The position numbers and the translations under genes were made by a program. Shown in pieces: positions 245-52,593 of a DNA stretch of 64,000 bases; position 1 is the first letter of the stretch, and each line of letters opens with the position of its first letter. The DNA is from Okeania sp. KiyG1 (GTDB lineage: Bacteria > Cyanobacteriota > Cyanobacteriia > Cyanobacteriales > Microcoleaceae): positions 1-64,000 of the forward strand of contig NZ_BLZO01000069.1 of NCBI RefSeq assembly GCF_014132355.1, in the 5' to 3' direction. The notes under the pieces are model-generated. The model ran no database searches and was not told the origin of the DNA. It saw only the letters and a list, made by a program, of their open reading frames with translations.

Positions 245-1775
245 TTACTTTGGTTGAGCACCAAAATTTTCAATTAGCAAATTCCGCAAAACAGGTTTGA
301 GGTCTTCACAGGGAATACCTTTTGAACGCAATTGCCAAGTTTAGCATCTTTGCCAACTGTGCCTCCCATGTACAGGTCAACACCCTCAACCATTTTACCA
401 TCTTTGCGGGCTTTAGTTCCCATCAAACCGATATCTGCAACCTGTGGCTGTCCACAAGAGTTGGGGCAACCAGTCCAGTGAATCCGTACTGGTTTTGGCA
501 TGGATAGTTCAGCCTGAGTTCCTTGACCATTGCTACGGCACGACTTTTGGTTTCGATGAGAGCAAAGTTACAAAACTGTGCCCCTGTGCATGAAACTACG
601 GCCCGAGTTAATGGTTGAGGATTAATGGAAAACTTTTCTAGCAGGGGTTCACCAAGGAACGCTTCGATTCTAGATTCTGGAATATTAGGAACTATAGCAT
701 TTTGTTCTACACTGAGCCTAATTTCTCCATTTCCATAAACCTCCGCTAGCCGCGCCAGCTCAAACATATCGTTAGCATACAGCCTACCAACCGGAATATG
801 CAACCCTATATAGTTTAATCCTGGTTGTTTTTGTTTGTAAACCCCTATGTGGTCCCGTTTTTCCCAGATAATTTCGTCTTTGGGAGCTTCTGTTTCTAGA
901 GTTTGCCCCATTTGTTGCTCGACTTTTGAGCGGAATTTGTCTAGACCTAATTCGTCAATTAACCACATTAGACGAGATTTCTGACGATTGGCTCGCGGTC
1001 CATTATCGCGAAATATTTCTAATATAGCTCGGCAGATGGCAACTACTTGATTTGGTTCTACCCAAGCATTTAGGGGGATAGCTGCTTCACAACGTTTGGC
1101 TGAGAAAAAGCCACCGACTAGAACATTAAAGCCAAACTTATCGTTTTTGTAAGCGGGAACAAAGGCAATATCATTGATTTCCGCATGAACAGAATTATCA
1201 CGACATCCAGCGATCGCTATATTGAATTTCCGTGGTAGATTGGTAAATTCTGGGTTGCCTTTGCTGTTGCCAGTAATCATGTCTTGGACTTGCTGCACTA
1301 ACTCACGAGTATCGTACAGTTCGTCTGCATCTATTCCTGCTACTGGGGAACCTGTAATGTTGCGTACATTATCCATACCTGATTGAACGGTGGTTAAACC
1401 TACTTGTTCAAATCGACTGAATATGTCTGGGATGTCTTCTATTCTAATTCCCCGCAGTTGCAAGTTTTGCCTGGTGGTAATATCCGCGCTACCATCTTCA
1501 CCGTAGCGTTGGACTATTTCTGCCAAGACTCGCATTTGCTTACTGGTGATGACTCCATTCGGCATCCGCATCCGCAACATAAATTTGCCTGGAGTTACTG
1601 GTCGGAAGAATATACCTAACCATTTTAGTCTGTGGTCGCGGTCAGTTTTGTCTATTGCTTCCCAACCAATATTGGCAAATTGTTCTAGTTCTGTTTTCAC
1701 TGCCAGACCATCTTTTTCTGCTTTAAATTTCTCAAATTTATTTAGTTTTTCTTGGCGTTCTACTGTGCCAGTCAT
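245..1775 (-). CDS. nirA: Ferredoxin-nitrite reductase NirA (reading frame broken twice in this sequence)
   Basis: NirA reduces nitrite to ammonium in the cytoplasm with six electrons from ferredoxin, using sirohaem and a 4Fe-4S cluster; it is the second step of nitrate assimilation. The N-terminal ferredoxin-like half (FRPVTPGKFMLRMRMPNG) and the sirohaem-binding part are clear, with cluster Cys motifs at 'SCTGAQFC' and 'GCPNSCGQPQ'. The frame is lost near 515 (inside 'KEL..AELSMPKPVRIHW') and again near 320 ('NCVQK' to 'GIPCEDLKPVLRNLL'). Adding one base at each place gives an unbroken protein of 510 residues, the normal family length, ending at TAA 245-247. Both sites are short base runs, so sequencing error is likelier than gene decay. 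The start is the ATG at 1775; an NtcA-type site lies 180 nt upstream. Confidence 0.9.
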
Positions 1776-1940
1776 TTCAGTTATCAGTTATCAGTTATCA
1801 GTTATCAGTACCTCCTGTAATAGGGAGGCTACGAGAATACGGAATTATCTTTCTTTTGGTCGATTAGATATGGCGAGGAGACCTTGCCATCTCTCGACCG
1901 CTTTTTATCTCCTTAAAAGGGCAGGAGGCTTTAGACCTTA
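1776..1940. repeat. Dispersed palindromic repeat in the nirA leader
   Basis: The segment begins with four TCAGTTA-type heptamer repeats directly next to the nirA start. It continues with a block containing ATGGCGAGG...CCTTGCCAT, an imperfect palindrome found in the same setting near 9370, 17710, 24450, 46590 and 62030. It is the shared 'TCAGTTATCAGT / GGCGAGG palindrome' element of this genome. It would form most of the 5' leader of the nirA transcript if the promoter is at the NtcA site. Confidence 0.6.
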
Positions 1941-2994: not shown

Positions 2995-4917
2995 ATGTTT
3001 GAATATAGACCTACTGGACAATGCTATCTCTGGAATCCTAGTTTAGTTAGCTTGCATTTAGTCTCAGATACTCTGATTACTATTGCTTACTTCTCTATCC
3101 CTCTAATATTGGTTTATTTTATCCAGCAAAGAAAAGATTTACCTTTTCCTTATATATTCTGGCTATTTAGTGCATTTATAGTTTCTTGTGGGACAAGCCA
3201 TCTTCTAGATGTGTGGACCTTATGGCATCCCACTTACTGGGTTTCAGGAACTCTGAAGGCTATAACTGCCATAATTTCATTGTTGACAGCTTTTGAACTC
3301 AGTATTCTCATGCCTCAAGCTTTAGCATTGCCTAGTCCAGCAGAACTAGAAAAAGCAAATCAGGAACTACACAAACAAATAGTAGAACGGCAGGTTATAG
3401 AAACTCAATTACGAGAAAGTGAGGTTAAATTTCGTGCTGCTGCAGAAGCAAGCTTAGATAGTTTATTTATATTTAATACTCTGCGGGATGAAACTGGAGG
3501 TATTATCGATTTTATTTTTGCAGAGCTAAACTCCCGCGCCGAACAACTCATTTCTATGTCTAAATCTGAAGTATTGGGACAAAGACTGTCCGAACTAATT
3601 CCTATCAACCGTACCGAAGGTTTCTTGGAAAAATACGTTCAGGTTGTGGAAACGGGAAAAGTTCTCAAAGAAGAGTTTTGCACAAATGCCTTTACCCCCA
3701 ACATTTCTTGGTTACAACACATGGTAGTTCCTCTAGCAGATGGTATTGCTATTACTACTAGAGATATCACTGAACGTAAACAGATGGAAAAAGTATTGCA
3801 AGAAAGAGAACAACGCTTCCGTCTAGCTTTTGACAATGCACCTATTGGTATTGCTCTAGTATCACTAGATGGAAAATTTATCCGGGTTAACCATGCTTTG
3901 TGCAAAATGCTGGATTACAGTGAAGTTGAATTGATCGAGTTAACTTTCCCAGAAATTACTTATCCTGACGATCTAGCTACCGATCTTGCCTTGATGCAGG
4001 AACTGTTAGAAGCAAAAAAAAGCAACTACAATATGGAGAAGCGCTATATTAGCAAGAAAGGTAATATTGTCTGGATAATTTTGAGTGTTTCTCTAGCAAA
4101 ATATCCATCAGGCGAACCTCTGTATTTTATTGCTCAAATTCAAAATATTACTCCCCGCAAGCAAAATGAAGCTAGACAGCAAAAGCTCATTACTCAGCTA
4201 AAAATTAGTAATCAAGAACTAGAGGATTTTGCTTATGTCGCTTCCCACGACCTGCAGGAACCACTACGGAAAATTCAGACTTTTGGCGATCGCCTCAAAG
4301 CTAAATATGGGGATGTGTTAGATGAAAAAGGACTAGACTATCTACGAAGAATGCAGAGTGCTGCCAACAGGATGCAAACTCTCATTAGAGATTTATTAAA
4401 CTTCTCCCGTATTACGACCAAAGCACAACCATATCTACCTGTAAGCCTTTCTCAAATAGTCGCAGAAGTTATTGACGACTTGGAAAACCGCATTGAACAA
4501 ACAAAAGCTCAGGTGGAAGTAGGAGAGTTACTGACTATTCAGGCCGACTCAATACAAATGCGACAATTGTTCCAAAACTTAATTGGCAATGCACTTAAAT
4601 TTCAATTACCAGAAAATCGTCCTATTGTCAAGGTAGAAGCAGTTTTACAGTGGAAAACTAATCAAGTTCAAATTATGGTATCCGACAATGGGATAGGTTT
4701 TGAGGAAAAATATTTAGACCGAATATTTACACCTTTTCAACGCCTGCATGGTAAGCAAAAATATCAAGGTACTGGCATGGGACTAGCAATATGTCGTAAA
4801 ATAGTAGAGAGACATAACGGTAATATTACTGCTCGTAGTATCCCCAATCAAGGAACTACTTTTGTGGTTACTTTGCCTATTGAACAGACTGCAGATGAAC
4901 AAAAGGAGCATATCTAA
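2995..4917 (+). CDS. Ethylene-receptor-like membrane histidine kinase (ETR1-type sensor domain, two PAS domains)
   Basis: Predicted membrane histidine kinase of 640 residues starting at the ATG at 2995. The frame is open back to 2806, but that extension is repeat-derived and fits no domain. Residues 1-110 form three membrane helices of the ethylene-binding type. With this start, Asp25, Tyr32, Ile35, Cys65 and His69 fall at exactly the plant ETR1 positions; Cys65 and His69 are the Cu(I) ligands in ETR1. PAS domains follow at about 144-260 and 271-393, then a HisKA domain with phosphoacceptor His418 in 'SHDLQEPLRKI', and a HATPase domain (about 512-632) with N and G boxes. A response regulator gene overlaps its 3' end, which makes that protein the likely partner. 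Signal identity (ethylene or another small hydrophobic ligand) is inferred from the conserved residues only. Confidence 0.88.
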   Translation: MFEYRPTGQCYLWNPSLVSLHLVSDTLITIAYFSIPLILVYFIQQRKDLPFPYIFWLFSAFIVSCGTSHLLDVWTLWHPTYWVSGTLKAITAIISLLTAFELSILMPQALALPSPAELEKANQELHKQIVERQVIETQLRESEVKFRAAAEASLDSLFIFNTLRDETGGIIDFIFAELNSRAEQLISMSKSEVLGQRLSELIPINRTEGFLEKYVQVVETGKVLKEEFCTNAFTPNISWLQHMVVPLADGIAITTRDITERKQMEKVLQEREQRFRLAFDNAPIGIALVSLDGKFIRVNHALCKMLDYSEVELIELTFPEITYPDDLATDLALMQELLEAKKSNYNMEKRYISKKGNIVWIILSVSLAKYPSGEPLYFIAQIQNITPRKQNEARQQKLITQLKISNQELEDFAYVASHDLQEPLRKIQTFGDRLKAKYGDVLDEKGLDYLRRMQSAANRMQTLIRDLLNFSRITTKAQPYLPVSLSQIVAEVIDDLENRIEQTKAQVEVGELLTIQADSIQMRQLFQNLIGNALKFQLPENRPIVKVEAVLQWKTNQVQIMVSDNGIGFEEKYLDRIFTPFQRLHGKQKYQGTGMGLAICRKIVERHNGNITARSIPNQGTTFVVTLPIEQTADEQKEHI

Positions 4918-5367
4918 GTTGAATAAAACACCAGTACCAATTCTCATGGCTGAAGATGATGAGGACGACCGCCTCCTGACAATAGAAGCTTTTGAGGAAA
5001 GTAGATTACTTAATAAGCTATATATTGTTGAGGATGGGGAAGAATTATTAGATTTTTACATCATCAAGGTGCTTATGCAGACCCCGGAACTTCGCCTCGA
5101 CCAGGACTAATTTTGTTAGACTTAAATATGCCTAAAAAAGATGGCAGAGAGGCTCTCAAAGAAATTAAATCTGACCCTAATTTATCTTTGATTCCTGTTA
5201 TAGTTTTAACTACTTCTAAAGAAGAAGAAGATATCTATACTTCTTATCAATTAGGAATTAGTTCATTTATTGTCAAGCCAGTAACATTTGAGGGATTAAT
5301 AACAGTAATTCAAGGTTTGAGTAGATATTGGTTTGAAATTGTTGAACTTCCTGCTAGAGAAGATTGA
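4895..5367 (+). CDS. Rcp-like single-domain response regulator (frame broken once)
   Basis: Receiver-only response regulator of the Rcp1 type that pairs with phytochrome-like kinases. It has the acidic patch 'AEDDEDD', phosphoacceptor Asp in 'LLDLNMPKKDG', 'LTTS' and the conserved Lys in 'IVKPV'. The frame breaks at a T run at 5053-5057: one more T joins 'ELLDF' to 'LHHQGAYADPG' and gives one protein of about 149 residues, a normal Rcp length. The gene overlaps the end of the histidine kinase gene. The ATG at 4895 lies inside that gene, while a TTG at 4919 follows an AAAGGAG site by 10 nt and gives a more typical N-terminus, so 4919 may be the true start. Likely target of the adjacent kinase. 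Confidence 0.8.
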
Positions 5368-5533
5368 ATCTGCTAGGGCAATTTTTAGGTTGATAATTTC
5401 CTGGGAAAATTATTGGAAAAATTATTGGGAAAATTATATTTATAATAAATTATTTTATGTTGGTGGCGATGCTAATTGTTTACCTAAATATAACTATAGT
5501 TAGTTGATAATATATAAAATCAAGCAGGCTGCT
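5368..5533. other. Short spacer before the cyclase gene
   Basis: AT-rich spacer with the direct repeat 'GGGAAAATTATT' / 'GGAAAAATTATT' at 5400-5440. No convincing promoter or terminator was seen. Confidence 0.4.
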
Positions 5534-8475
5534 ATGCAAAAATACACTATTAATATTCTCCTGATAGAAGATGATGAAGATGATTTTATTGTCATTGATG
5601 ATATATTGTCAGAAGTAGAGTCACCAAAAATCTCCCTGGTGTGGGAAAAGACCTATGAAGGGGGGTTAGCTGCAATACAAACAGGAGAATATGATGTTTG
5701 TTTGCTTGACTATCGTCTAGGAGAAAAAGACGGCATAGATTTACTCAAAGCAGCAATAGAACTTAATTGTCAGACACCAATTATATTCATCACAGGTCAA
5801 GGCGATCGAGAATTAGACCTACTGGCAATGAAAATTGGGGCAGCAGATTATTTGAATAAATTAGAAATTCGAGAATATACATTAGAGCGAGTAATTCGCT
5901 ATGTGATTGAAAGAAATAAAAATTTAATTGCCCTCAAAGAAACTCAAGCCAAACTACAAGAAGCACAAAAAATACCTCATTTGGGTAACTGGGTATTAGA
6001 CCTCAAAACACAGAAAATTACTTGGTCTGATGAAGTACTGAGGATTTTGGGTCTGAGTGGTACTCAAAAGCCACCAACTTGTACAGAATTCCTCCAAATG
6101 TTCCTTCCCGAAAGTAGAAAATTATGGGAAAAAAATATGGCTTTAATCTTAGAGAAAAGCCAAAAGTGTGAGTGTGAATATGAAATAATTCGCCCAGATG
6201 GAACAGCGAAATATCTTTATACGAAGACGAGTTTAATTACAAATAGTAACTTAGAACCAATCAAAATCTTTGGCACAATTCTAGATATTACCAAGCGCCA
6301 ACTAGCCGAATTAGAACTCAAAAAATTAGAAAACAAGAGAACTTATTAAGTTTAGTGATAGACAAAATTAATCAGTCTTTAAACTTAGAGGAAATATTAG
6401 AAACTACAGTAGAGTCAGTGCGAGAGTTTTTGCAATGCGACCGCGTAATAATTTATCGTTTATTAGCAAATGGTCATGGTGTTGTAGAAAAAGAATCTTT
6501 AGCACCAAATTATCTTTCACTGTTAGGCATGACAATTTTCGATCCATGTTTTCCCAACAGCAATATTTTAGAACGTTATAAACAAGGTCATTTTAGTATT
6601 ATTAGTAATATTAATCGACCGGATATACAAGAATGTTATGCAGAGATGCTGAGAAAATTTCAGGTGAAAGCAAATCTAGTACTACCCATCTTAATTACAG
6701 AGGAAACTGAAAATAAAAATCAGATTGACAATTCAGAAATTAATGTATGGGGGTTATTAATAGCTCATCAATGTCGAGAAAATAGACAGTGGGAAATATC
6801 AGAAACTGATTTATTAAGGCGCTTGGCAGCTCAGACAGCGATCGCTATTCAACAAGCTCAACTTTATCAATATGTAGAAAGCTTAAACCAAGAATTAATA
6901 GATAATAATTTATTTTTACAACAAGAAATTACAGAAAGAAAAAGAGCTGAAGCCGAAATCAGGTTTTTATTAGAAACTACTCAATCTATTAATAATACAG
7001 ATGATTTTCATTCTGCATTAACAATTATGCTTCAGTCTTGTTGTCAATTAATTGATTGGGATTTTAGTGAAGCCTGGATTCCTAATCAAGATACTAATTT
7101 CCTCGAATGTAGTCAAGGTTGGTGCCCTCAAAAACCAGATTTATTTGAGTGTAGAGACCAGATTATGAAACTAATTTTTAGTCATAATAATGGTTTGCCT
7201 GGTAGAATTTTTGCATCCAAAAAATCAGAGTGGGTTGAAGATTTTTCAACTGAGTCAAAATTAGCTGCTGTAGCAGATTTAAAAACAGCTTTTGGCGTAC
7301 CAATTATTGTCGAAAATAAAGTGTTGGCAATCTTGATTTTCTTTAACAAAAAGGTACTACATGAACAGTTACATATAATGCAATTAATTGAGGCAGTAGC
7401 TACTCAATTAGGCTCTCTAGTCCAACGTAAGCAAGCAGAAGAATCTCTGATAATTGCAGAACAACGATATCACGAGATAGTAGAAAATGCTGTTGATGGT
7501 ATTTTTCAGACTACTCCTTCTGGGCGTTTTATTAGTGCAAATATGGCATTAGCAAGAATGTATGGTTATAGTTTGCCAGAAGAGTTAATCAAGAATACTC
7601 AAGATATTTCTCGCCAGCTTTATGTTGAAGCAAACCGACGGCAAGAATTTATATCGGCAATAGAAGTGGATAATGCAGTGTATAATTTTGAGTCCTTAGT
7701 ATATCGCAAAGATGGTAATACAATGTGGATTTCTGAAAATGCTCGTGCTGTCCATGATTCTCAGGGAAAATTATTGTATTATGAGGGTACTGTTTCCAAT
7801 ATTAGCGAGCGGAAAATAGCACAGGAAGCTTTGAAGCTTCAGAAACAACAAATGCAAGAATTATTGCTAAATATTTTGCCAGCTAAAATTGCTCAACGTT
7901 TGCAAAAAGGAGCAAGAGCGATCGCTGATAGTTTTGATGATGTGAGCGTGTTATTTGCTGACTTGGTAGGGTTTACTGAATTTTCCTCAAATGTTTCTCC
8001 CATAGAACTTGTAGAACTTCTGAATTTGATTTTTTCGGAGTTTGACCAACTAACTCAAAAACATCGTTTAGAGAAAATCAAAACTATTGGAGATGCTTAT
8101 ATGGTAGTTGGTGGTTTGCTAATAAAACAAGAAGAGCATTTACAGGCGATCACTAATATGGCGCTAGAGATGCAAGCTTGTTTAGATCGTATTTGCATTC
8201 AACAACAAACATCTCTAACTCTACGAATTGGTATCCATGTTGGACCTGTGGTTGCTGGAGTTATAGGTCAAACTAAATTTATCTACGATCTGTGGGGTGA
8301 TACTGTAAATACTGCATCTCGAATGGAGTCTAGTGGTATTGATGGTAAAATTCAAGTTACCTCTGTTGTATATCAGCGGCTCAAAGAAAAATTTGTATTT
8401 GAAGAGCGAGGGGAGGTTTCAATTAAAGGAAAGGGAAATATGACTACCTATCTACTTTCAACAATTAATAATTAA
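5534..8475 (+). CDS. Receiver-PAS-cyanobacteriochrome GAF-GAF-PAS-adenylate cyclase (frame broken once)
   Basis: Multidomain light/phosphorelay-regulated class III nucleotide cyclase. The frame breaks near 6331: this copy has six A's where its paralogue at 9596 has seven. With the base restored the protein has 980 residues. Order: receiver (1-125, phospho-Asp in 'CLLDYRL'), PAS (about 150-260), GAF (about 285-445) with Cys339 in DPCF and Cys368 followed by Tyr, a second unrelated GAF, a PAS, and the cyclase domain with 'FADLVGFTEFSS' (metal Asp), 'KIKTIGDAY' (Lys) and 'YDLWGDTVNTASRMES'. Lys plus Asp at the base-recognition positions favour ATP, so the product should be cAMP. The DXCF plus second Cys pattern is that of bilin-binding DXCF cyanobacteriochromes. 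The start is the second ATG (5534), matching the paralogue. Confidence 0.87.
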
Positions 8476-9595
8476 TAATTAATAATTAATAATTATATCA
8501 TGTCCGGATAATTAGTTATAAAAAAACTTTCTCCTTCAACTCCAGTTGTTCTTCTTTCTTCCCCTCCACCGGAGGGGAGGGGCGAGGTGGGTTGACTCCT
8601 GAGGACTCCGTAGTTATTTATTTATCACTGTTTAACCGGACATGATATTAATCATCCTTTAAAATGGATAGGATTGAATCAAAGGAAAATCTTGATTTTT
8701 ATCCCCTTAAAATGGGAGGCTTTAAACCACAATTTTTCGGTAAATAAAAAGTAAACTAAGATCTAATATCAAGTTGCCGATAGACCAGAATATAAAAAGA
8801 TGAAAAAGATGGCATACTCCTCAAGAGTCATCAAAAGGAGACTTAAACTATTAGCCAATAAAATCCTTGGCGAGCTTGGCGAGCCATGTCATACGCTCTT
8901 GAAAATCTATCCAATTTCCTCCTACTCTCTAATAAATATAAATATCCAAAAAATAAAAAATTATCAATAATAATTGATAAATTATCAATTTATTACTGCT
9001 TATAACCTATTATATATTCCCTATTTTAATGTTTTTTTGGATCTTTTAAAGAGGTATGATATAATAGTTAAATACTTACAAATAAATGTATAGTTAGATG
9101 ATACATGAAAAAACTGTGGTCGCGATCAAATAAATATATAGGCAAAATTGTTTTTATATTGACTGTTGAGTTATATTTCTCTCCCAGAGATAACTTAAGT
9201 AAATTTATTTTAGTAAAAAATGCATCGCTCATTTTTTGTTAGTACTTATAGAAGTTTTCATAAAGGTAGACTACATTCAAGAATTTAGAATTTAGAATTT
9301 AGAATTTAGAATTACCTCTCCTTTATAAAGAAGAGGATTGACTCAAAGGAAAATTTTTCTTCTCTTGGTCTCATGGATATGGCGAGGAGACCTAGCCATC
9401 CCACCCTACGGGAAGCTCCGCTACGACCACTTTTTATCCTCTTAAAAGAGGAGGCTTTCAAACACAATTTTTCGGTAAAAATTGTACATATACCTAAAGT
9501 TTAATAAGTTGCATAAATAGTTGTATTCTATGAAACATGAAAACCGCTGTAAATATTATTCTCAAAGTAAAATTTAGTCAATAAATATTTATATC
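8476..9595. other. Gene-free repeat-rich spacer (1.1 kb)
   Basis: No supported gene. The spacer begins with TAATAAT short tandem repeats (8466-8494) and an ATATCATGTCCGG element (listed separately). It then holds a fragment of the GAGGCTTTAAACC/TTTTTCGGTAA dispersed repeat (8660-8745), an AT-rich stretch, TAGAATT repeats (9280-9314) and a fuller copy of the GGCGAGG palindrome element (9310-9478). Confidence 0.6.
8495..8648. repeat. MITE-like element with ATATCATGTCCGG terminal inverted repeats
   Basis: A 154 bp segment with near-perfect termini ATATCATGTCCGG...CCGGACATGATAT. Related full or partial copies occur near 12659, 30017, 32431, 34186, 35839 and 36490. The interior carries pyrimidine-rich TTCTTCTTTC tracts and GGGTTGACTCCTGA. 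It has no coding capacity. Confidence 0.75.
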
Positions 9596-12256
9596 ATGGA
9601 AAAGCAGACTATTAATATTCTCCTCATAGAAGATGATGAAGATGATTTTATTGCCATTGATGACATCTTGTCAGAAGTAGGATTGCCAAAAATATCCCTG
9701 GTGTGGAAAAATACTTATGAAGGAGGTTTGGCTGCAATACAAACAGGAGAATATGATGTTTGTTTGCTTGACTATCGTCTAGGAGAAAAAGACGGCATAG
9801 AACTACTCAAAGCAGCAATAGAACTTAATTGTCAGACACCAATTATATTCATCACAGGTCAAGGCGATCAAGAATTATACCTACTGGCGATGAAAATAGG
9901 AGCAGCAGATTATTTGAATAAATTAGAAATTCGAGAATATACATTAGAGCGAGTAATTCGCTATGTGATTGAAAGAAATAAAAATTTAATTGCCCTCAAA
10001 GAAACTCAAGCCAAACTACAAGAAGCACAAAAAATACCCCATTTAGGTAACTGGGAATTAGACCTCAAAACACAGGAAATAACTTGGTCTGATGAAGTAC
10101 TGAAGATTTTTGGTCTGAGTGGGACTCAAAAGCCACCAACTTATACAGAATTCCTCCAAATGTTCGCCCCCGAAAGTAGAAAATTATGGTCGGAAAATAT
10201 GGCTTTAATCTTAAAGAAAACCCAAAAGTGTGAGTGTGAATATGAAATAATTCGCCCAGACGGAACAGTGAAATATCTTTATACAAAGACGAGTTTAATT
10301 ACAAATAGTAACTTAGAATCAATCAAAATCTTTGGCACAATTCTAGATATTACCAAGCGCCAACTAGCCGAATTAGAACTCAAAAAAATTAGAAAACAAG
10401 AGCATTTATTAAGTCTGGTAATAGACAGAATTAATCAGTCTTTAGACTTAGAGGAAATATTAGAAACTACAGTAGAGTCAGTGCGAGAGTTTTTGCAGTG
10501 CGACCGCGTAATAATTTACCGTTTCTTACCAAATAGTCATGGTATTGTAGAAAAAGAATCTTTAGCGCCAAATTGTATGTCACTGTTAGGCATGACAATT
10601 GTCGATCCATGTTTTCCCAACAGCAATATTTTAGAACGTTACAAACAAGGTTATTTTAATATAATTAATAATATCGATCGATCAGGGAAACAACAATGTC
10701 ATGTCGATATGCTCAGGGATTTTCAGGTGAAAGCAAATATAGTGCTACCTATCTTAATTCCAAACGAAACCGAAAACAAAAATCAGATTGACAATTCAGA
10801 AATTAATGTATGGGGGTTATTAATAGCTCATCATTGTCGAGAAAATAGACAGTGGGAAATATCAGAAACCAACTTATTAAGGCGCTTGGCAGCTCAGACA
10901 GCGATCGCTATTCAACAAGCTCAATTTTATCAACGTTTAGAAAAACTAAATCAAGAATTAAAAGCAATTGCATATATTGATGATTTAACAGGAGTGTTTA
11001 ACCGTCGTCATTTTGAGCAAAAATTTAAACAAGAATGGAGAAGGTTGGCACGGGAGGAAGCTGTCATATCAATTATTATGTTAGATATAGACTACTTTAA
11101 ACCTTATAACGATACCTACGGTCATCAGCAGGGAGATAAATGTTTGCAACAAATAGCTATAGCTATTCAAGCTGTGGTGAAACGGCCAGGAGATTTTGTC
11201 GCTCGATATGGTGGAGAAGAGTTTGTAGTTGTGTTGCCAAATACCCCCATTGAAGGAGCACTTAAGGTTGCAGAAAATATCAGAATAGAAATTGAAGCTT
11301 TAAAAATTCCTCATCAAGCTTCAGCAACAAGTCAATGGGTGACAAGTAGCTTAGGAGTTGCAGATAGCAATTGTGCAAAAACATCTAATCCAGAGAGATT
11401 GCTAAAAGCAGCAGATACAGCCCTCTACAATGCTAAAACTTCTGGCAGAAACCGCATAGAGATTTATTATATATGTATGGAAACTTTAGAGAAACAAAAA
11501 CAAGAAATTAATTTAGTTACACAACTACGAGATGCTTTAAGAGAAAACGGTTTTTGTCTGTTTTCACAAGCAATTGTTCCATTGCATGAAGGCGTACAAA
11601 CAAAACTTTATGAAGTTTTGCTCAGATTTAGATATCCTTCAGGTAAAATTATTTCACCCGCTACTTTCCTGCCAGTAGCGGAGCGCTATCATCTAATGCC
11701 AAGAATTGACCGTTGGGTGGTAAAAAATCTACTATATTTGCTGTCTTTGCAGAAAATCGATCATTTAGACCAAGATTGTATTTTTACTGTTAATCTTTCT
11801 GGTGCTAGCATCAACGATAACCACTTTCTAGAATTTATCGAACATCAATTTACCTGTTTCCAAGTGCCCCCCCAAAAAATTTGTTTTGAGATTACTGAGA
11901 CTATAGCTATTACGAATTTAGATAAAGCAGCAAAATTTATTCAGTCTCTCAAACAAATTGGTTGTAGTTTTGCTTTGGATGATTTTGGCAAAGGAATGTC
12001 TTCTCTTTCTTATCTTACAAACTTGCCAGTAGATTATCTCAAGATTGACGGGATGTTTATTAAGAAGATGGAAAAAGATACTGTCACTCAAGGAATAGTA
12101 GAAGGTATTCATCACATTGGCAGGGCAATGAATTTAAAAGTAGTAGCTGAATATATAGAAACAGAGTCAATGCTCAACAAAGTCAGTAGTTTAGGAATAG
12201 ATTATGGTCAAGGATTTTATCTTGATAAACCAAGTCCACTTTTGTCTTCTGTTTGA
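9596..12256 (+). CDS. Receiver-PAS-cyanobacteriochrome GAF-GGDEF-EAL c-di-GMP protein
   Basis: Intact 886-residue bifunctional c-di-GMP enzyme with a light-sensor-like front end. Domains: receiver (1-125, phospho-Asp59), PAS (about 150-255), GAF (about 285-445), GGDEF (about 455-625) and EAL (about 640-880). The GAF has the DXCF motif (DPCF, Cys339), the canonical bilin Cys368-His369, and 'VWGLLIAHHC', as in DXCF cyanobacteriochromes that sense UV/blue to green light. The cyclase site is GGEEF (539-543) with an RxxD inhibitory site (RPGD 530-533). The EAL part keeps E673 in EVLLR, 'FEITET', 'LDDFGKG', 'LKIDGMF' and 'VAEYIE', so both activities look possible. The first 445 residues are nearly the same as in the cyclase gene at 5534, an evident segmental duplication. 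Confidence 0.93.
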   Translation: MEKQTINILLIEDDEDDFIAIDDILSEVGLPKISLVWKNTYEGGLAAIQTGEYDVCLLDYRLGEKDGIELLKAAIELNCQTPIIFITGQGDQELYLLAMKIGAADYLNKLEIREYTLERVIRYVIERNKNLIALKETQAKLQEAQKIPHLGNWELDLKTQEITWSDEVLKIFGLSGTQKPPTYTEFLQMFAPESRKLWSENMALILKKTQKCECEYEIIRPDGTVKYLYTKTSLITNSNLESIKIFGTILDITKRQLAELELKKIRKQEHLLSLVIDRINQSLDLEEILETTVESVREFLQCDRVIIYRFLPNSHGIVEKESLAPNCMSLLGMTIVDPCFPNSNILERYKQGYFNIINNIDRSGKQQCHVDMLRDFQVKANIVLPILIPNETENKNQIDNSEINVWGLLIAHHCRENRQWEISETNLLRRLAAQTAIAIQQAQFYQRLEKLNQELKAIAYIDDLTGVFNRRHFEQKFKQEWRRLAREEAVISIIMLDIDYFKPYNDTYGHQQGDKCLQQIAIAIQAVVKRPGDFVARYGGEEFVVVLPNTPIEGALKVAENIRIEIEALKIPHQASATSQWVTSSLGVADSNCAKTSNPERLLKAADTALYNAKTSGRNRIEIYYICMETLEKQKQEINLVTQLRDALRENGFCLFSQAIVPLHEGVQTKLYEVLLRFRYPSGKIISPATFLPVAERYHLMPRIDRWVVKNLLYLLSLQKIDHLDQDCIFTVNLSGASINDNHFLEFIEHQFTCFQVPPQKICFEITETIAITNLDKAAKFIQSLKQIGCSFALDDFGKGMSSLSYLTNLPVDYLKIDGMFIKKMEKDTVTQGIVEGIHHIGRAMNLKVVAEYIETESMLNKVSSLGIDYGQGFYLDKPSPLLSSV

Positions 12257-13183
12257 GGGTAGGGAGTAGGGAGTAGGGAGTAGGGGAGTGGGGAGTGGGG
12301 AGTGGGGAGTAGGCAGTAGGGAGTGGGGGAGTAGGGGAGATTACAACAGTTTCGGAGTTAGTGAGGTACAACATTTTAGGACTTTAGGCAACAGGCAAAA
12401 GAGAATTAATCAGCAAAAGAGAATTAATAAACTTTACCTCACTATCCTAAAAAGTGCTGTAAATATTGAAGTATAGTTATCAATGGATAATGGATAATGG
12501 ATAATTGCTTAATTTGGTCTAATACCAATGTGATAAATTTTTGTTACAAATAGTAGCAATAAGGAAGAGGGAAGAAAGAGGAAGGAGCAGGGAGAAAGAA
12601 TTGATGAATCAGAGTGGGATAATTGATTTGATTTTTTGGCGTTGGTAATTTGAGGTATGATATCGTGTCCGGATAAGAGCGCGATAGAAGTGCATGACCT
12701 TTACGCTCCCCGAAAAACTTTATCCTTCTACTCCTCCTTCTTCTTCTTTCTCCCCTCCTGGGAGGGGTTGGGGGTGGGTTGACTCCTGACTCGGTCCTCC
12801 TGAGTTCCCTCCTGGGAGGGGTTAGGGTGGGTTGACTCCTAAGTAGTTAAGATTAATATCATGCACGCGCTTTACCAACGCCGATTTTTTTTATTATTGG
12901 AAATGTCTATTGTATTTTATCAAGATTTATGCTACTGATATCAAATCAGCTTAAATACTTATTATTGGGAATAGGGGAGTAGGGGATATTGAATATTGAA
13001 GTAATTATAGAATTATCAACATATATTAATAACCGGATTCTATATGAATTATCAAATACAATAAAATAGAAAATTCAAGCATAGTTCTCAGCAGACGAGG
13101 ATTTGAAGGATAAAAGTATTCTTTTAGACTTTAGCTAAATTAGAAAAAAAGTAGTGTAAAAATGAGAATAGGGAAAAAATACT
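12257..13183. other. Gene-free repeat-rich spacer (0.9 kb)
   Basis: No supported gene. It holds GGGAGTGGGGAGT-type short tandem repeats (12256-12335), GGATAAT repeats (12484-12502), 'ATACCAAT...GTTACAAATAGTAG' (12522-12552, a repeat end also seen at 25707, 27023 and 38526), and a degenerate ATATCATGTCCGG element with embedded GGGAGGGGTT repeats (about 12659-12864). The last 200 bp before the pentapeptide gene are AT-rich and probably contain its promoter; no clear -10/-35 stands out. Confidence 0.5.
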
Positions 13184-15022: not shown

Positions 15023-15176
15023 ATATCAAATCCGGTAGCATCGGTGTAATTAGATGGGGAGATGGGGGGATGGGGGGATGGGGACCCACCCCTAACCCCT
15101 CCCTGGAGGGGAGAAATATTTGGTAATCGTTGAAGATGGAACATTTTTTACGTGCCGAATTAAACGGATTTGATAT
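15023..15176. repeat. Inverted-repeat element with ATATCAAATCCG termini
   Basis: A 154 bp segment bounded by ATATCAAATCCG and CGGATTTGATAT. Inside is a G-rich GGGGATGG tandem and an ACCCCTAACCCCTCC tract. Just upstream (14938-14986) is a fragment of the AGGGYTTGCTGA element end. Confidence 0.6.
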
Positions 15177-15185
15177 TATTGGTGC

Positions 15186-15678
15186 GGGGGCGGGTTTACC
15201 AGCTCCTGGGTAAAACCATTAACTTCACGCGGAACCCGCCGGGGGCGGGTTTACCAGCTCCTGGGTAAAACCATTAACTTCACGCGGAACCCGCCGGGGG
15301 CGGGTTTACCAGCTCCTGGGTAAAACCATTAACTTCACGCGGAACCCGCCGGGGGCGGGTTTACCAGCTCCTGGGTAAAACCATTAACTTCACGCGGAAC
15401 CCGCCGGGGGCGGGTTTACCAGCTCCTGGGTAAAACCATTAACTTCACGCGGAACCCGCCGGGGGCGGGTTTACCAGCTCCTGGGTAAAACCATTAACTT
15501 CACGCGGAACCCGCCGGGGCGGGTTTACCAGCTCCTGGGTAAAACCATTAACTTCACGCGGAACCCGCCGGGGGCGGGTTTACCAGCTCCTGGGTAAAAC
15601 CATTAACTTCACGCGGAACCCGCCGGGGCGGGTTTACCAGCTCCTGGGTAAAACCATTAACTTCACGCGGAACCCGCC
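15186..15678. repeat. Tandem array: nine units of 54-55 bp behind the lipoxygenase gene
   Basis: Nine head-to-tail units; six are 55 bp in a row, then 54, 55 and 54. The units differ only in the length of one G run. Each starts with GGCGGGTT and ends with AACCCGCC, an 8 bp inverted repeat, and also contains TTTACC...GGTAAA. The array is far more GC-rich than its surroundings and ends 35 bp from the 3' end of the convergent lipoxygenase gene. There are no variable spacers, so this is not a CRISPR. Confidence 0.95.
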
Positions 15679-31579: not shown

Positions 31580-32755
31580 TTTTGCACCCCGTTCGATGTA
31601 ATAACTACCGAATATTTGCATATTGGCAAAATTTTTTAGGGATGTCAATTATGAAATAAAAGTTAAAAATTTTTATCATTCATGCTTCATAAAATACTTT
31701 TTTGTTAGTTATAAAATCAATAAATACTCACAAATTTAATCATTAGAAATCTCTGGAAAAGAGGGAGTAGGGAGTAGGGGAAAATAATTGATTATTTATG
31801 TACAATAATTGATTTTATTTTTTATTATTGGAGATATCTATTAGTTTACAGAAAAATCTATGTCAAAATCTGAATTTTGACTATTAGTATATTACTATGA
31901 AAGACTACCGAATAATTTACAAATTTACTCAAAAGCCAAATTTTAATTTGACAAAATAGCAAAGCTCTAGTAAAATATAATACTTATAATATTTCCTAAC
32001 TTTTAATATCAAGTCTCATTTAATTAGCCATAATAAAAATGTTCAACTCTAGAGAGAGAATATTTTTTCCGTTTGTCATGGGGAACAAACAAATTTCCTC
32101 TTGTTCCCTACTCCCTACTCCCTAAATTTTTTATCAAAATAATTGGGTCGCGCAACCCCGCCTTTTAAGGCGAAATATTTTTGGAGAGTTGCTCAAATCC
32201 CTTACTTCCCCTCCTGGGAGGGGCGGGGGTGGGTTGGGTTAAGGGTTGGTTAACTTCTGTACAGATGGTTCGCGTGTAGGGGTGCTTCGCGAACCACCCC
32301 TACTGTAAGGACGCCCTTGCGAAGCCCATGCCGTCAGGCTATATGGCCATTTGCGCTCTGCAAAGCTCCGAATGGCGCCTCTACTGACTTCTGACTTCGT
32401 TAATGGGGTTATTTAAAGAGACACGATATTATATCATGTCCGGATAAGAGCGCGATAGAACTCCGTTCCGCTCGGCGTTAACGCAGTTGTGCGCCAGCAA
32501 ACAAAAAAACTTTCTCCTTTTCCTCCTCTTATTTCTTGCTTCTTTCTTCCCTCCTGACTCCTGACTTCCCCTCCCCTCCACGGTCGGGGTTAGGGGTGGG
32601 TTGACTCCTGAGGACTCCGTCATTTTATTTATAAGTAATCAACCGTACATAATATAAGATATTTTCTGCACAATTCAAATAGGACTGCTAGGGATAGAAA
32701 AATATATTTAAATCATTAATATTAACCTGTAGAGTAAAACTATGTATCATCAGAA
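31580..32755. other. Gene-free spacer (1.2 kb) with two MITE-like elements
   Basis: Includes a TAGACATCTCC-type element (31744-31840), an AT-rich stretch, CTCCCTACTCCC repeats, a GGGAGGGGCGGGGGTGGG tract (32212-32232), 'GTAGGGGTGCTTCGCGAACCACCCCTAC' (a palindromic short repeat at about 32276-32303) and an ATATCATGTCCGG element (32431-32656). No gene was seen. Confidence 0.55.
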
Positions 32756-34105
32756 ATGGAAAAAAAGAATTATTTTTTGTTTATTATTTATCTTAATTTT
32801 TTTAGTACCATTATCTTAAACATTCTATGGCTCAAACAATCAGCGATCGCTGTAAAAGACGAGGACTGGGATAGATTTTTAGAACAGAAAGATTTTATTG
32901 AAGCAGTAAATCAAGTTGAGCAACATTGGGAAAGAGACTATGAAAATTACTTTGATGAAAATCTAGCTGACTTTTCAGTAACTGCTGAAGGTATAGCTGA
33001 AACTCTTTCAAATATATCTCAACAAACTGGTACAAAACCTGCAGTTATTTGGATTTGGTCACGAGCAGAGCAAATGCAGCTAATATTAATAACTCCAGGC
33101 AAAAAACCAGAAATTTATAGTGTTACTGATGCAGATAGGCCACAGTTAATTAATACAGTCAGAAGGCTAAATGTAGAAATTACAAATCCTAGAAAACGCA
33201 ATACAAAATCATATTTAGAGTCAGCACAAAAATTACATGAATGGATGGTAAAACCATTAGAAAAAACTTTAAAACGGGAAAAAATAGATACTATTATGTT
33301 CTGCTTAGGTATGGGTTTACGAACTTTACCATTAGCAGCATTACATGATGGAGAAAATTTTTTGATAGAAAAGTATGCTCTTACTAGAATTCCAGCATTT
33401 AATCTGATAGATACTAACTACAATAAAATTAAAAATGCTGAAATATTAGCAATGGGAGCATCAGAATTTAAAGAACTAGAACCTTTACCAGCAGTACCAG
33501 TAGAAATCAACAAAATCACGCGATTTGTGTGGCAAGGTAATGCTTTGATAAATCAAGATTTTACAGTGAAAAATTTACAAGCTCAACGACAGAAAAAATC
33601 TTATGAAATAGTTCATTTGGCTACCCATGCAGAGTTTAGACCAGGAAAACCAGAACGGTCTTATATACAGTTTTGGAATGATGAACAAATCGGATTAGAT
33701 GAAATAGAAAAATTAAAACTGAATGACCCCCCAGTAGAATTATTAGTTTTAAGTGCTTGTCGCACTGCTTTGGGGGATAGACAAGCAGAATTGGGTTTTG
33801 CGGGGTTAACGGTAAAGTCAGGAGTTAGATCGGCATTAGCAAGTTTATGGAATGTCAGCGATATCGGAACATTAGCATTAATGACAGAATTTTATCAACA
33901 CTTGCAAAAAACACTACTGAGAGCAGAAGCACTCCGACAAGCTCAAATTGCAATGATACGAGGGGAAGTAGGTATAAATATGGGTGAGTTAAGTGGAACT
34001 AGGGGAGAGTTACAACTACCTCCAGAATTGTCAGAGTTTGGCGATGAAATTTTTTCCCACCCTTATTATTGGTCAGCTTTTACATTAATTGGTAATCCTT
34101 GGTAA
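32756..34105 (+). CDS. CHAT-domain (caspase-like) protease with membrane signal
   Basis: 449 residues. An N-terminal hydrophobic segment (about 5-32) is followed by an acidic linker and a CHAT peptidase domain (about 160-449). Catalytic dyad: His291 in 'HLATHAEF' and Cys335 in 'LSACRTALG'; 'SGVRSALASLWNV' and the terminal 'YYWSAFTLIGNPW' are family hallmarks. CHAT proteins act as proteases in cyanobacterial signalling or death-like responses and often follow TPR repeats; this one has none. A second frame starting at ATG 32742 reads 'MYHQKWKKRIIFCLLFILI' and would join the main frame at 32809 if one T were missing, giving a better signal peptide, so the N-terminus may be affected by another run-length error. 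Confidence 0.88.
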   Translation: MEKKNYFLFIIYLNFFSTIILNILWLKQSAIAVKDEDWDRFLEQKDFIEAVNQVEQHWERDYENYFDENLADFSVTAEGIAETLSNISQQTGTKPAVIWIWSRAEQMQLILITPGKKPEIYSVTDADRPQLINTVRRLNVEITNPRKRNTKSYLESAQKLHEWMVKPLEKTLKREKIDTIMFCLGMGLRTLPLAALHDGENFLIEKYALTRIPAFNLIDTNYNKIKNAEILAMGASEFKELEPLPAVPVEINKITRFVWQGNALINQDFTVKNLQAQRQKKSYEIVHLATHAEFRPGKPERSYIQFWNDEQIGLDEIEKLKLNDPPVELLVLSACRTALGDRQAELGFAGLTVKSGVRSALASLWNVSDIGTLALMTEFYQHLQKTLLRAEALRQAQIAMIRGEVGINMGELSGTRGELQLPPELSEFGDEIFSHPYYWSAFTLIGNPW

Positions 34106-50524: not shown

Positions 50525-50665
50525 AATTAATACCAATTTGTTTGATAAATGTTTGCTACAAATTTCTGTTGCCTGTTCCTTATAACTAGAGTTTTGTAAC
50601 ATTATTTATTTTCACGCTTAGTATTGAACCCACAAAGAAAAGATAATAAAATTATTAACTAGAAA

Positions 50666-52593
50666 ATGAAAACAGCAATCAGAAATATTAATACTCAGAT
50701 ATTAGAGGATAATTTACAAAAAAGCTGGCAATCTTTGAGAGATTTCAATGATGCTTGTAAAATTAAATGTGACTTAAAAGCTGGAACATTATTAGTGATT
50801 TGTGAACATCCAGCAAATTTAGTGATAGATCGAGAGAAAACAATTTCTGAGTTAAAAGATATAGTTCAAAAACAACCACTAGAATCTATTGAGAAAATAG
50901 GTATTTGTTTAAATGTGATTGGTCATATACATCCTTATGCTTATCATTCATTTTTTACCAAGAGTCGGCAAGAAGAGTCTACATTAACTTTTATGCCGAG
51001 ATGGGTAGATAGAGATATGGATTATCAAGTAAAAATTACATCAGAATTTTTAGATTCTTTAGATAATCCATTTGATTTAAAAATTTAGAACAGATATCTA
51101 TTAGGTTAGAGTCTGAGCTAAACACTAATGTCGAGAAAGAGGATATTCCTGGAAATAAAAGTCAAAACTCAGAGATTAAAATTACTTCAAAATTGCTGGA
51201 TGATTTAGATAACCCCTTTGATGCGGAAGGATTAGATCTATCTCTAAAAATCAAGAATAAAAGCAAAAATTCTAATTATGTAGAACAAAAATCAACTGTT
51301 AACTTCAGTACCTTCTCTAAAGTAGAATTTCTCAGTGCCAGTTTAAGTTTGACCATTTTAATAGGCTGTTTTTATGCAATAACTCAACCCTGTGTTATAG
51401 GAAAATGTATGATCGTACCCACAGCAAGAGAGTTAAATCAACAATCATTAGAAACAATTAAAAATTTTCAAAACTCTCTAGCTCCAAAGCAAGCAAAAGA
51501 AAAGTTACAAAAAGCAGTTCAAGATTTAAACAAAATTCCATTTTGGTCAATACATTATCTAGAGTCACAACATTTAAAATCTACTTACAAAGTAGAAATT
51601 CAACATTTGGAAAATATTGAACAAGCTTTAGCTAAAGGTCAACAAGCAGCTCAAAATAGTAAAACTTTGCCACTCAAAGTAGAAGATTGGATAGAAACTC
51701 AATCACTTTGGCAAAATGCAATTTTCTTACTAGAAAAAGTACCAGAAGATAGTACTGCTTATCCTTTTGCTAAGAATAAACTACAGCAATATCGTAAATA
51801 TTTAGTGGCGATTAAAGGTAGATTAACAACAGAAGAAGCAGCAGATAAAAAATTAATTGCTGCTAAAAAATCAGCTCAGTTAGCAAATACAAGAGAAGTC
51901 GTAGCTCAGTTTCCTGAAAGCTGGAAAAGTGTATATTCAAGTTGGGCGGATGCCTTAGATAAAATATCTTCTATTCCACCACAAACAACTGCCTATTTAG
52001 AAGCTAAAAATTTACTCCCTCAGTATGAACAAAAACTTCAGTTAGCTGAGGAACGTAGGATTATAGAACAAATTGGTGAAGAATATTATAATCAAGCTAT
52101 TAGTTATGCGAAACAAGCTGAAGTTTTTGAGACAAAAGATAATTGGCAAGAGGCTGTGGAATATTGGCAAAATGCTCTAAATTCTGCTGAGGAAGTACCT
52201 ACCAATTCTAGTTATTTTTCTAAGGCAAAACCTCTGATTAAATCTTATGACACTATTCTCAAAATAGCACAAGCTAACCAGAGATTTTTAGATACTATAG
52301 CTAAAGCTCGTCAAGATTTAAGTAAGACTTGTAAGGGAACACCCAAAATTTGTGAATATAGTATTACTAAGGATTTAATTACTGTACGCTTAACTTCTGA
52401 TTATGTGGATAAAATTAAGAAAACAGCTAAGGAGTTACAGGGGAATAAAGATCAAAAGAGTTTGAATCAACTAGAAAAACATTTGAAAACTTTACAGATA
52501 GCTTTGAAGGCTATTAGTAATAATGCCAATATTCCTTTAGAGGTTTATAACCCACAAGGTTTAAAAATTGCTGCTCATATTCCTAATAGTTGA
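50666..52593 (+). CDS. DNPFD-motif membrane protein with repetitive helical domain (frame broken once)
   Basis: Two frames, 50666-51088 and one ending at 52593, join into a single protein of about 642 residues if one A is added to the five-A run near 51080: 'NPFDLKI-stop' becomes 'NPFDLKNLEQISIRLESEL', which continues without stops to the next ATG. Domains: an N-terminal alpha/beta unit (1-115), two 'KITS..LD.LDNPFD' motifs about 45 residues apart, a membrane helix ('LSASLSLTILIGCFYAITQ'), then four to five related helical repeats with 'W..A...L..IP..T.AY..A...L..Y', a TPR-like pattern common in cyanobacterial membrane proteins. The C-terminal part is probably extracytoplasmic. No function known. 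Confidence 0.75.

What the first reader, a model, noticed from the sequence alone, without database searches (positions are those of the whole stretch)
5534..12256. One cyanobacteriochrome-type sensor module duplicated onto two second-messenger outputs (cAMP and c-di-GMP)
The genes at 5534 and 9596 share about 445 nearly identical N-terminal residues (receiver, PAS, DXCF-type GAF) and then diverge completely: GAF-PAS-class III cyclase in one, GGDEF-EAL in the other. Both GAFs carry DPCF (Cys339) and a second Cys368, 29 residues apart, close to the 28-residue spacing in characterised DXCF cyanobacteriochromes. If both bind bilin, one light signal plus a phosphorelay input would set cAMP and c-di-GMP at the same time.
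Basis: partly seen in the sequence, partly recalled or inferred. Interest (0 to 1): 0.85.

Follow-up and report, generated by a model that had tools for sequence, protein, structure and literature searches.

The report
Shared light sensor on two messengers
In the marine cyanobacterium Okeania, two neighbouring genes carry nearly the same phosphate-and-light sensor, one predicted to make the messenger cAMP and the other to make and break c-di-GMP; DNA exchange between the two sensors looks likely, and the reading-frame break seen in the first gene of this genome is probably a sequencing error.

Summary
Largely right, but a frame break was missed. The window is from Okeania sp. KiyG1 (contig count and length equal the published nanopore assembly). 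Gene B (9596-12256) is intact: REC-PAS-GAF-GGDEF-EAL. Gene A is two ORFs (5534-6349, 6355-8475) because an A-run has 6, not 7, bases; three other Okeania have it open over 993-998 codons. Six frame breaks in 5 of 23 compared window genes are all one-base deletions, five in homopolymers: probably residual nanopore error. Both GAFs align with the DXCF cyanobacteriochrome TePixJ, cysteines in register; 16 of 16 GAFs compared keep them. A is a domain replacement: B's REC-PAS-GAF stands where a paralogue (REC-GAF-PAS-cyclase) has its REC. In KiyG1, REC-PAS rejects an A clade while the GAF rejects pairing A with B (AU p 2e-5, 0.006), suggesting gene conversion; the whole module alone does not reject an A clade (p 0.11). 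Two of six same-genus genomes have only B. Cyanobacteriochrome enzymes for cAMP and for c-di-GMP are known separately; eight literature searches listed no such pair. Bilin binding and enzyme activity are untested.

The parts
2995..4917 (+). Sensor histidine kinase: ETR1_N (ethylene-receptor-like membrane domain), PAS, PAS, HisKA, HATPase. The listed ORF starts at 2806; relatives match only from about 2929-2938 on, and the next Met that fits is at 2995.
   Evidence: Pfam; orthologues; position of the Met
4901..5367 (+). Single-domain response regulator (RcpA-like is a recalled name), frame broken near 5053 by a one-base deletion in a T-run
   Evidence: Relatives' 156-161 codon open frames match in two frames; alignment
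5534..6349 (+). Gene A, first ORF: receiver (5555-5863) and PAS (6014-6280)
   Evidence: ORF, Pfam, residues 1-265 91% identical to B
6320..6325 (+). Run of six A where B has seven: the frame break of gene A
   Evidence: Sequence; seven alignment rows from five other genomes
6355..8475 (+). Gene A, second ORF: DXCF-type GAF (6382-6849), second GAF (7000-7419), PAS (7465-7809), class III nucleotide cyclase (7927-8460)
   Evidence: ORF, Pfam, solved relatives
6547..6549 (+). Cys of DPCF in A's GAF (second Cys)
6634..6636 (+). Canonical chromophore Cys in A's GAF, followed by Tyr
8476..9595 (.). 1,120-base spacer between A and B with short repeats; promoter- and terminator-like sites over 4700-12500 not clearly above the shuffled expectation
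9596..12256 (+). Gene B: receiver (9617-9925), PAS (10079-10339), DXCF-type GAF (10445-10912), GGDEF (10970-11455, motif GGEEF), EAL (11522-12232)
   Evidence: ORF, Pfam, solved relatives
10610..10612 (+). Cys339 of DPCF in B's GAF
10697..10699 (+). Cys368, canonical chromophore Cys in B's GAF, followed by His

Best explanation
The locus is a two-component input (ETR1-like histidine kinase and response regulator) followed by two tandem effectors with homologous sensors. Shown by sequence: both effectors begin REC-PAS-DXCF GAF; B ends in GGDEF-EAL, A in GAF-PAS-class III cyclase; A looks like a replacement in which B's module stands in place of the REC of a REC-GAF-PAS-cyclase paralogue. Supported but not proven: the REC-PAS part of A was converted from B in KiyG1; the frame break of A is an assembly error, so the protein is probably about 980 residues as in three relatives. 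Inferred: both GAFs bind a phycocyanobilin-type bilin and switch, most likely blue/green, and both receivers take phosphate from the upstream kinase, so that light and a kinase signal together set cAMP and c-di-GMP, probably for motility or aggregation. The CY/CH difference may give the two sensors different colour or kinetics.
For: Domains. GAF alignment to TePixJ with both Cys in register; 16 of 16 GAFs aligned (4 A, 7 B, 5 of the third paralogue D) keep DPCF and the canonical Cys. Bilin reductase matches in the genome. A open over 998, 993 and 998 codons in SIO3B5, SIO2B3 and SIO1I7. Paralogue E = REC-GAF-PAS-cyclase, 73% identical to residues 152-704 of A's second ORF. Receiver Asp59 and Lys109 in B; GGEEF with RPGD upstream, EAL-type and cyclase motifs present (meaning of the residues recalled). 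HK and RR upstream of A or B in SIO2B3, SIO2C9 and SIO1I7; HK-RR-REC-(PAS)-GGDEF-EAL also in L075 and L080. REC-PAS rejects A monophyly, GAF rejects pairing of KiyG1 A with B. dN/dS of A's pieces in pairs with KiyG1 is 0.255-0.499, against 0.258-0.719 in pairs without it, so not raised. Assembly method: GridION, Flye, Pilon, single-cell amplified DNA.
Against: No spectra or enzyme data. A's frame is broken in the only assembly of this strain examined. The AlphaFold model of B's GAF is poor (mean pLDDT 61.7). The kinase link is not universal: no HK or RR match was found in the short flanks held for B in G022, G026 and Hydrocoleum, only an RR in G012, and the kinase of O. hirsuta is in two pieces. 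Single-cell amplification and polishing with 75-cycle reads could blur two 92%-similar copies, so the conversion signal in KiyG1 may be partly technical; over the whole module A monophyly is not rejected (AU p 0.11), and SIO3B5 shows no obvious conversion (its A and B are 86-89% alike). The cyclase gene is missing at the locus in 2 of 6 same-genus genomes.
Confidence: 0.7

Rival explanations
1. Gene A is really broken in KiyG1: a recent pseudogene, or two separate proteins (REC-PAS and GAF-GAF-PAS-cyclase).
For: The assembly has the break, and it was polished with Pilon.
Against: Six breaks in 5 of 23 compared genes, two of them in the gene at 248-1787, all one-base deletions and five in homopolymers; open in 3 of 3 other Okeania that have A; dN/dS not raised.
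Confidence: 0.15
2. Gene A is expressed through a -1 ribosomal or polymerase slip at the A-run.
For: A six-A run lies exactly at the break.
Against: The other Okeania A genes do not need it; comparable one-base losses occur in unrelated genes of the same window.
Confidence: 0.03
3. The GAFs are cyanobacteriochrome relatives that do not bind bilin or do not signal; the real input is the receiver and the PAS.
For: No experimental data; A has Tyr after the canonical Cys; the GAF has an insertion against TePixJ.
Against: Both Cys kept in 16 of 16 GAFs aligned across A, B and D; best solved relatives are cyanobacteriochromes (E down to 2e-37 for B, 3.9e-33 for A); Tyr also follows the canonical Cys in miRFP670nano as aligned (that it binds a bilin is recalled).
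Confidence: 0.12
4. No gene conversion: A and B are simply recent duplicates, and the discordant trees reflect few sites, assembly mixing or rate differences.
For: Single-cell amplified, short-read polished assembly; SIO1I7's identical stretch abuts a run of N with repeated sequence on both sides; the whole-module test does not reject A monophyly; SIO3B5 shows no obvious conversion.
Against: REC-PAS and GAF reject opposite topologies; in SIO2B3 the start of B matches its own A at 274 of 281 nt, 5 of the 7 differences in the first 14 nt, up to the contig end.
Confidence: 0.3

Closest known systems
SesA, SesB, SesC of Thermosynechococcus (cyanobacteriochromes with c-di-GMP enzymes; PMC8846402 and PMC9090330, passages seen)
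   Same: A GAF with phycoviolobilin drives c-di-GMP synthesis or breakdown; several such sensors act together in one cell
   Different: No cyclase partner with the same sensor module is described in the passages seen; here a receiver and PAS precede the GAF and a kinase pair lies upstream
cPAC, cyanobacteriochrome-based adenylyl cyclase (Blain-Hartung 2018; paper not held; mention in a review, PMC8892541, passages; natural source in Microcoleus recalled)
   Same: A cyanobacteriochrome controls an adenylyl cyclase with blue and green light
   Different: Here the module is shared with a c-di-GMP enzyme next door, has a REC and PAS in front, and a second GAF and a PAS before the cyclase
SynEtr1/UirS (slr1212) of Synechocystis (PMC6682694, passages seen)
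   Same: Ethylene-binding domain on a histidine kinase that passes phosphate to a response regulator and affects phototaxis
   Different: Pfam finds PAS domains and no GAF in the Okeania kinase; the light GAF is in the downstream effectors
HK-RR-REC-PAS-GGDEF-EAL locus of Pseudomonas (L075) and HK-RR-REC-GGDEF-EAL of Pleionea (L080)
   Same: Same gene order and related effector
   Different: No GAF in the effector by Pfam; no cyclase among the ORFs listed beside it (by eye, not searched)

Membership tests
DXCF cyanobacteriochrome | GAF domain closest to cyanobacteriochromes | tested here: met
   phmmer best solved relatives 6oap, 8k9o, 6bhn, 7ckv, 3vv4; Foldseek rows are mostly cyanobacteriochromes, phytochromes and fluorescent proteins made from them, on a low-confidence model
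DXCF cyanobacteriochrome | Canonical Cys and second Cys in DXCF, aligned with TePixJ | tested here: met
   Alignment to 3vv4; 16 of 16 GAFs
DXCF cyanobacteriochrome | Covalent bilin, PCB to PVB isomerisation, reversible photoconversion | not testable with these tools
   Needs expressed protein and spectra; definition from PMC11284453 passages
XRG (red/green) cyanobacteriochrome | WXDXXL motif | tested here: not met
   Focal has VDPCF (B) or FDPCF (A) where 6bhn has WEDTHL
Class III adenylyl cyclase | Guanylate_cyc domain with metal Asp residues and Lys/Asp for adenine | tested here: met
   Pfam 2.4e-67; motifs located; alignment to adenylate cyclases; meaning of residues recalled
Class III adenylyl cyclase | Makes cAMP | not testable with these tools
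   No assay
GGDEF-EAL bifunctional c-di-GMP enzyme | GGDEF/GGEEF and EAL-type residues present | tested here: met
   Pfam; GGEEF, RPGD, EVLLR, NLSGAS, FEITET, LDDFGKG, KIDG, YGQGF; alignment to PA0861 and others; meaning of residues recalled
GGDEF-EAL bifunctional c-di-GMP enzyme | Makes and breaks c-di-GMP | not testable with these tools
   No assay
Receiver domain | Phosphoacceptor Asp and conserved Lys | tested here: met
   Asp59 in A and B, Lys109 in B; Pfam Response_reg
Ethylene receptor-like kinase | ETR1_N domain with the Cys/His pair | tested here: inconclusive
   Pfam 1.6e-39; CGTSH at residue 128 of the listed ORF, role of the pair recalled; binding not tested

The most novel reading that the evidence does not exclude
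The two genes form a recombining sensor cassette: exchange between the 1.3-kb direct repeats keeps the kinase-and-light input of a cAMP enzyme and a c-di-GMP enzyme in register, and crossing over between them deletes the cyclase in some species, so the messenger output of one light sensor is switched on an evolutionary time scale.
Probability: 0.35. Interest if true: 0.65.

Novelty: new variant of a known kind. Interest (0 to 1): 0.5.

Why it matters
Light control of cAMP and of c-di-GMP by cyanobacteriochromes is known in separate proteins. A pair with a shared, possibly co-evolving sensor gives a direct test of whether one input sets both messengers together, and of how a sensor can be moved to a new output: the junction lies just after the GAF, with a traceable donor for each half. 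It is also natural material for light-controlled cyclases.

Tried and rejected
Programmed frameshift at the A-run: considered, not favoured (rivals). Operon A-B: 1.1 kb spacer; over 4700-12500, promoter-like sites 34 against 30.1 expected, terminator-like 1 against 3.8, so nothing to conclude. Gain or loss of A in O. hirsuta and SIO2C9: tested on the B C-terminus, rpoB, and rpoB plus one window gene; the root inside Okeania is unresolved (AU p for those two being basal 0.08, 0.05, 0.35), so both remain open. Their single gene has a start and near flank like A's, which fits both an unduplicated ancestor and a crossover deletion. SIO1I7's 1,007 nt of A/B identity lies next to a run of N, so SIO1I7's B was dropped from the AU tests; it was in the trees. 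The clade list printed shifts the support labels on rooting; I read them from the Newick string. Structure of B's GAF: low confidence, weak support only; one of two AlphaFold jobs and one of three Foldseek jobs used. Papers: searches showed no report of this pair in the titles and abstract openings listed (listings are capped, and only openly licensed PMC papers are held). NCBIfam passed its cut-off only for general PAS and GGDEF domain models in the rows shown (25 best rows of 59, 80 and 85 for three of the four proteins).

Full report
What is there. The window is contig 69 of a 10,982,302-base assembly in 198 contigs. These two numbers equal those in Table 1 of the announcement of Okeania sp. 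KiyG1 (PMC7660993, whole text read), a single-cell amplified, GridION-sequenced, Flye-assembled and Pilon-polished genome.

Gene order. A gene at 248-1787 on the minus strand, then on the plus strand an ETR1_N-PAS-PAS histidine kinase, a single-domain response regulator, gene A, a 1.1 kb spacer and gene B. B is one ORF of 886 codons. A is two ORFs in two frames, because the run at 6320-6325 has six A where B has seven.

Is the break real? I compared the window with open frames of at least 100 codons in relatives, keeping matches of at least 70% identity that cover at least 75% of the frame; 23 genes (28.2 kb) could be compared and 5 have frame breaks. The six breaks are all one-base deletions in the focal sequence: five in homopolymers (near 324, 5053, 6324, 32797 and 51083), one not (516). 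A is open over 998, 993 and 998 codons in SIO3B5, SIO2B3 and SIO1I7. dN/dS of A's pieces in pairs with KiyG1 is 0.255-0.499, against 0.258-0.719 without it. With the sequencing method known, a residual nanopore error is the likely cause; it is not proven.

The sensor. A and B share 91% of residues 1-265 and 83% of the GAF. The GAFs align with TePixJ (3vv4) with the DPCF Cys and the canonical Cys in register, spacing 29 against 28. All 16 GAFs aligned keep both: 4 A, 7 B and 5 of a third paralogue D (REC-PAS-GAF-GGDEF). After the canonical Cys, A has Tyr in 4 of 4; B has His in 6 of 7 (Tyr in G012); D has His in 5 of 5. Two B genes not in that alignment: SIO2B3 has His; SIO1I7, beside a gap, has Tyr. 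The genome has ferredoxin-dependent bilin reductase matches on C156 and C72. Typical DXCF cyanobacteriochromes switch between blue and green (PMC11284453, passages).

The outputs. A's cyclase and B's GGDEF and EAL keep the motifs usually needed for activity (meaning of residues recalled). Nothing was assayed. A review ties light-dependent motility to cAMP and c-di-GMP in cyanobacteria (PMC10117731, passages).

How A arose. The GAF-PAS-cyclase part of A is 73% identical to a separate gene in the same genome that starts with its own receiver. So A looks like B's REC-PAS-GAF put in place of that receiver. The fusion was seen in 4 of 60 genomes (own, G001, G002, G005, rows starting at query residue 1). 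In a class-wide draw of 388 genomes, 7 matched an intact A at 1e-150 and only the focal one reached into the shared GAF; rows of the other six began at residue 428 or later (other Okeania were not among the seven). In an order-wide draw of 291, 2 matched the second ORF at 1e-250: the focal genome and SIO2B3 (this cut-off would miss more distant fusions). B-like genes, some broken, were seen in 10 of 60 genomes (own, G001-G005, G012, G022, G026, G035).

Recombination between the two. With SIO1I7's B left out, REC-PAS rejects a single clade of A (delta lnL 77, AU p 1.8e-5), while the GAF rejects pairing KiyG1's A with its B (AU p 0.0057); over the whole module A monophyly is not rejected (p 0.11). 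In the REC-PAS tree, KiyG1's A groups with its own B (support 86) and then with SIO3B5's B (support 100), so the direction would be B to A. In SIO2B3 the first 281 nt of B differ from A at 7 places, 5 of them in the first 14 nt, up to the contig end, and the rest of its GAF from residue 350 on is 88% like A and has the B-type His. In SIO1I7, A and B are identical from nt 262 to 1268, but a run of N follows. SIO3B5 shows no obvious conversion (A and B 86-89% alike). O. hirsuta and SIO2C9 have B alone directly after the response regulator, with a start like A's. Whether they lost A or never had it is open. Caveat: single-cell amplification and short-read polishing can mix close copies.

The input. 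An HK-RR pair next to a REC-GGDEF-EAL gene is also found in Pseudomonas L075 and Pleionea L080, without the GAF by Pfam, so phosphotransfer from that kinase to the receivers is a fair inference. Against it, no HK or RR match was found in the short flanks held for B in G022, G026 and Hydrocoleum, and only an RR in G012. In Synechocystis the ETR1-type kinase SynEtr1 links ethylene, UV-A and phototaxis (PMC6682694, passages).

Verdict. The finding is a real shared-sensor pair, better described as a domain replacement with probable gene conversion. Each half has known counterparts: SesA/B/C for c-di-GMP and cPAC for cAMP. Eight literature searches listed no report of such a pair; the listings are capped and only openly licensed papers are held.

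Noticed in passing
window 248-1787 (-): A 510-514 codon gene (looks like a ferredoxin-dependent nitrite/sulfite reductase; name recalled) has two one-base deletions near 324 and 516 against five other Okeania.
   Followed up: yes
window 32712-34102 and 50663-52590: Two further genes with one-base homopolymer deletions against G003 and G005, pointing to assembly error along the contig.
   Followed up: partly
window about 2656-2911: A repeat of about 250 bases just upstream of the kinase gene matches many places in the five other Okeania genomes searched (capped list).
   Followed up: no
window 15130-15678: Tandem array of a 55-base unit.
   Followed up: no
L068 about 5493-6974: In O. hirsuta the kinase gene matches in two pieces about 1.5 kb apart, as if interrupted by an insertion.
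   Followed up: no
G000:C156:11644-12317 (L128, L129): A third bilin reductase match is split in two rows with a TGA inside, possibly another assembly indel.
   Followed up: no
L053 (G000:C85): The third paralogue D (REC-PAS-GAF-GGDEF) is split near residue 50-58 in KiyG1 but matches in one frame there in four relatives.
   Followed up: partly
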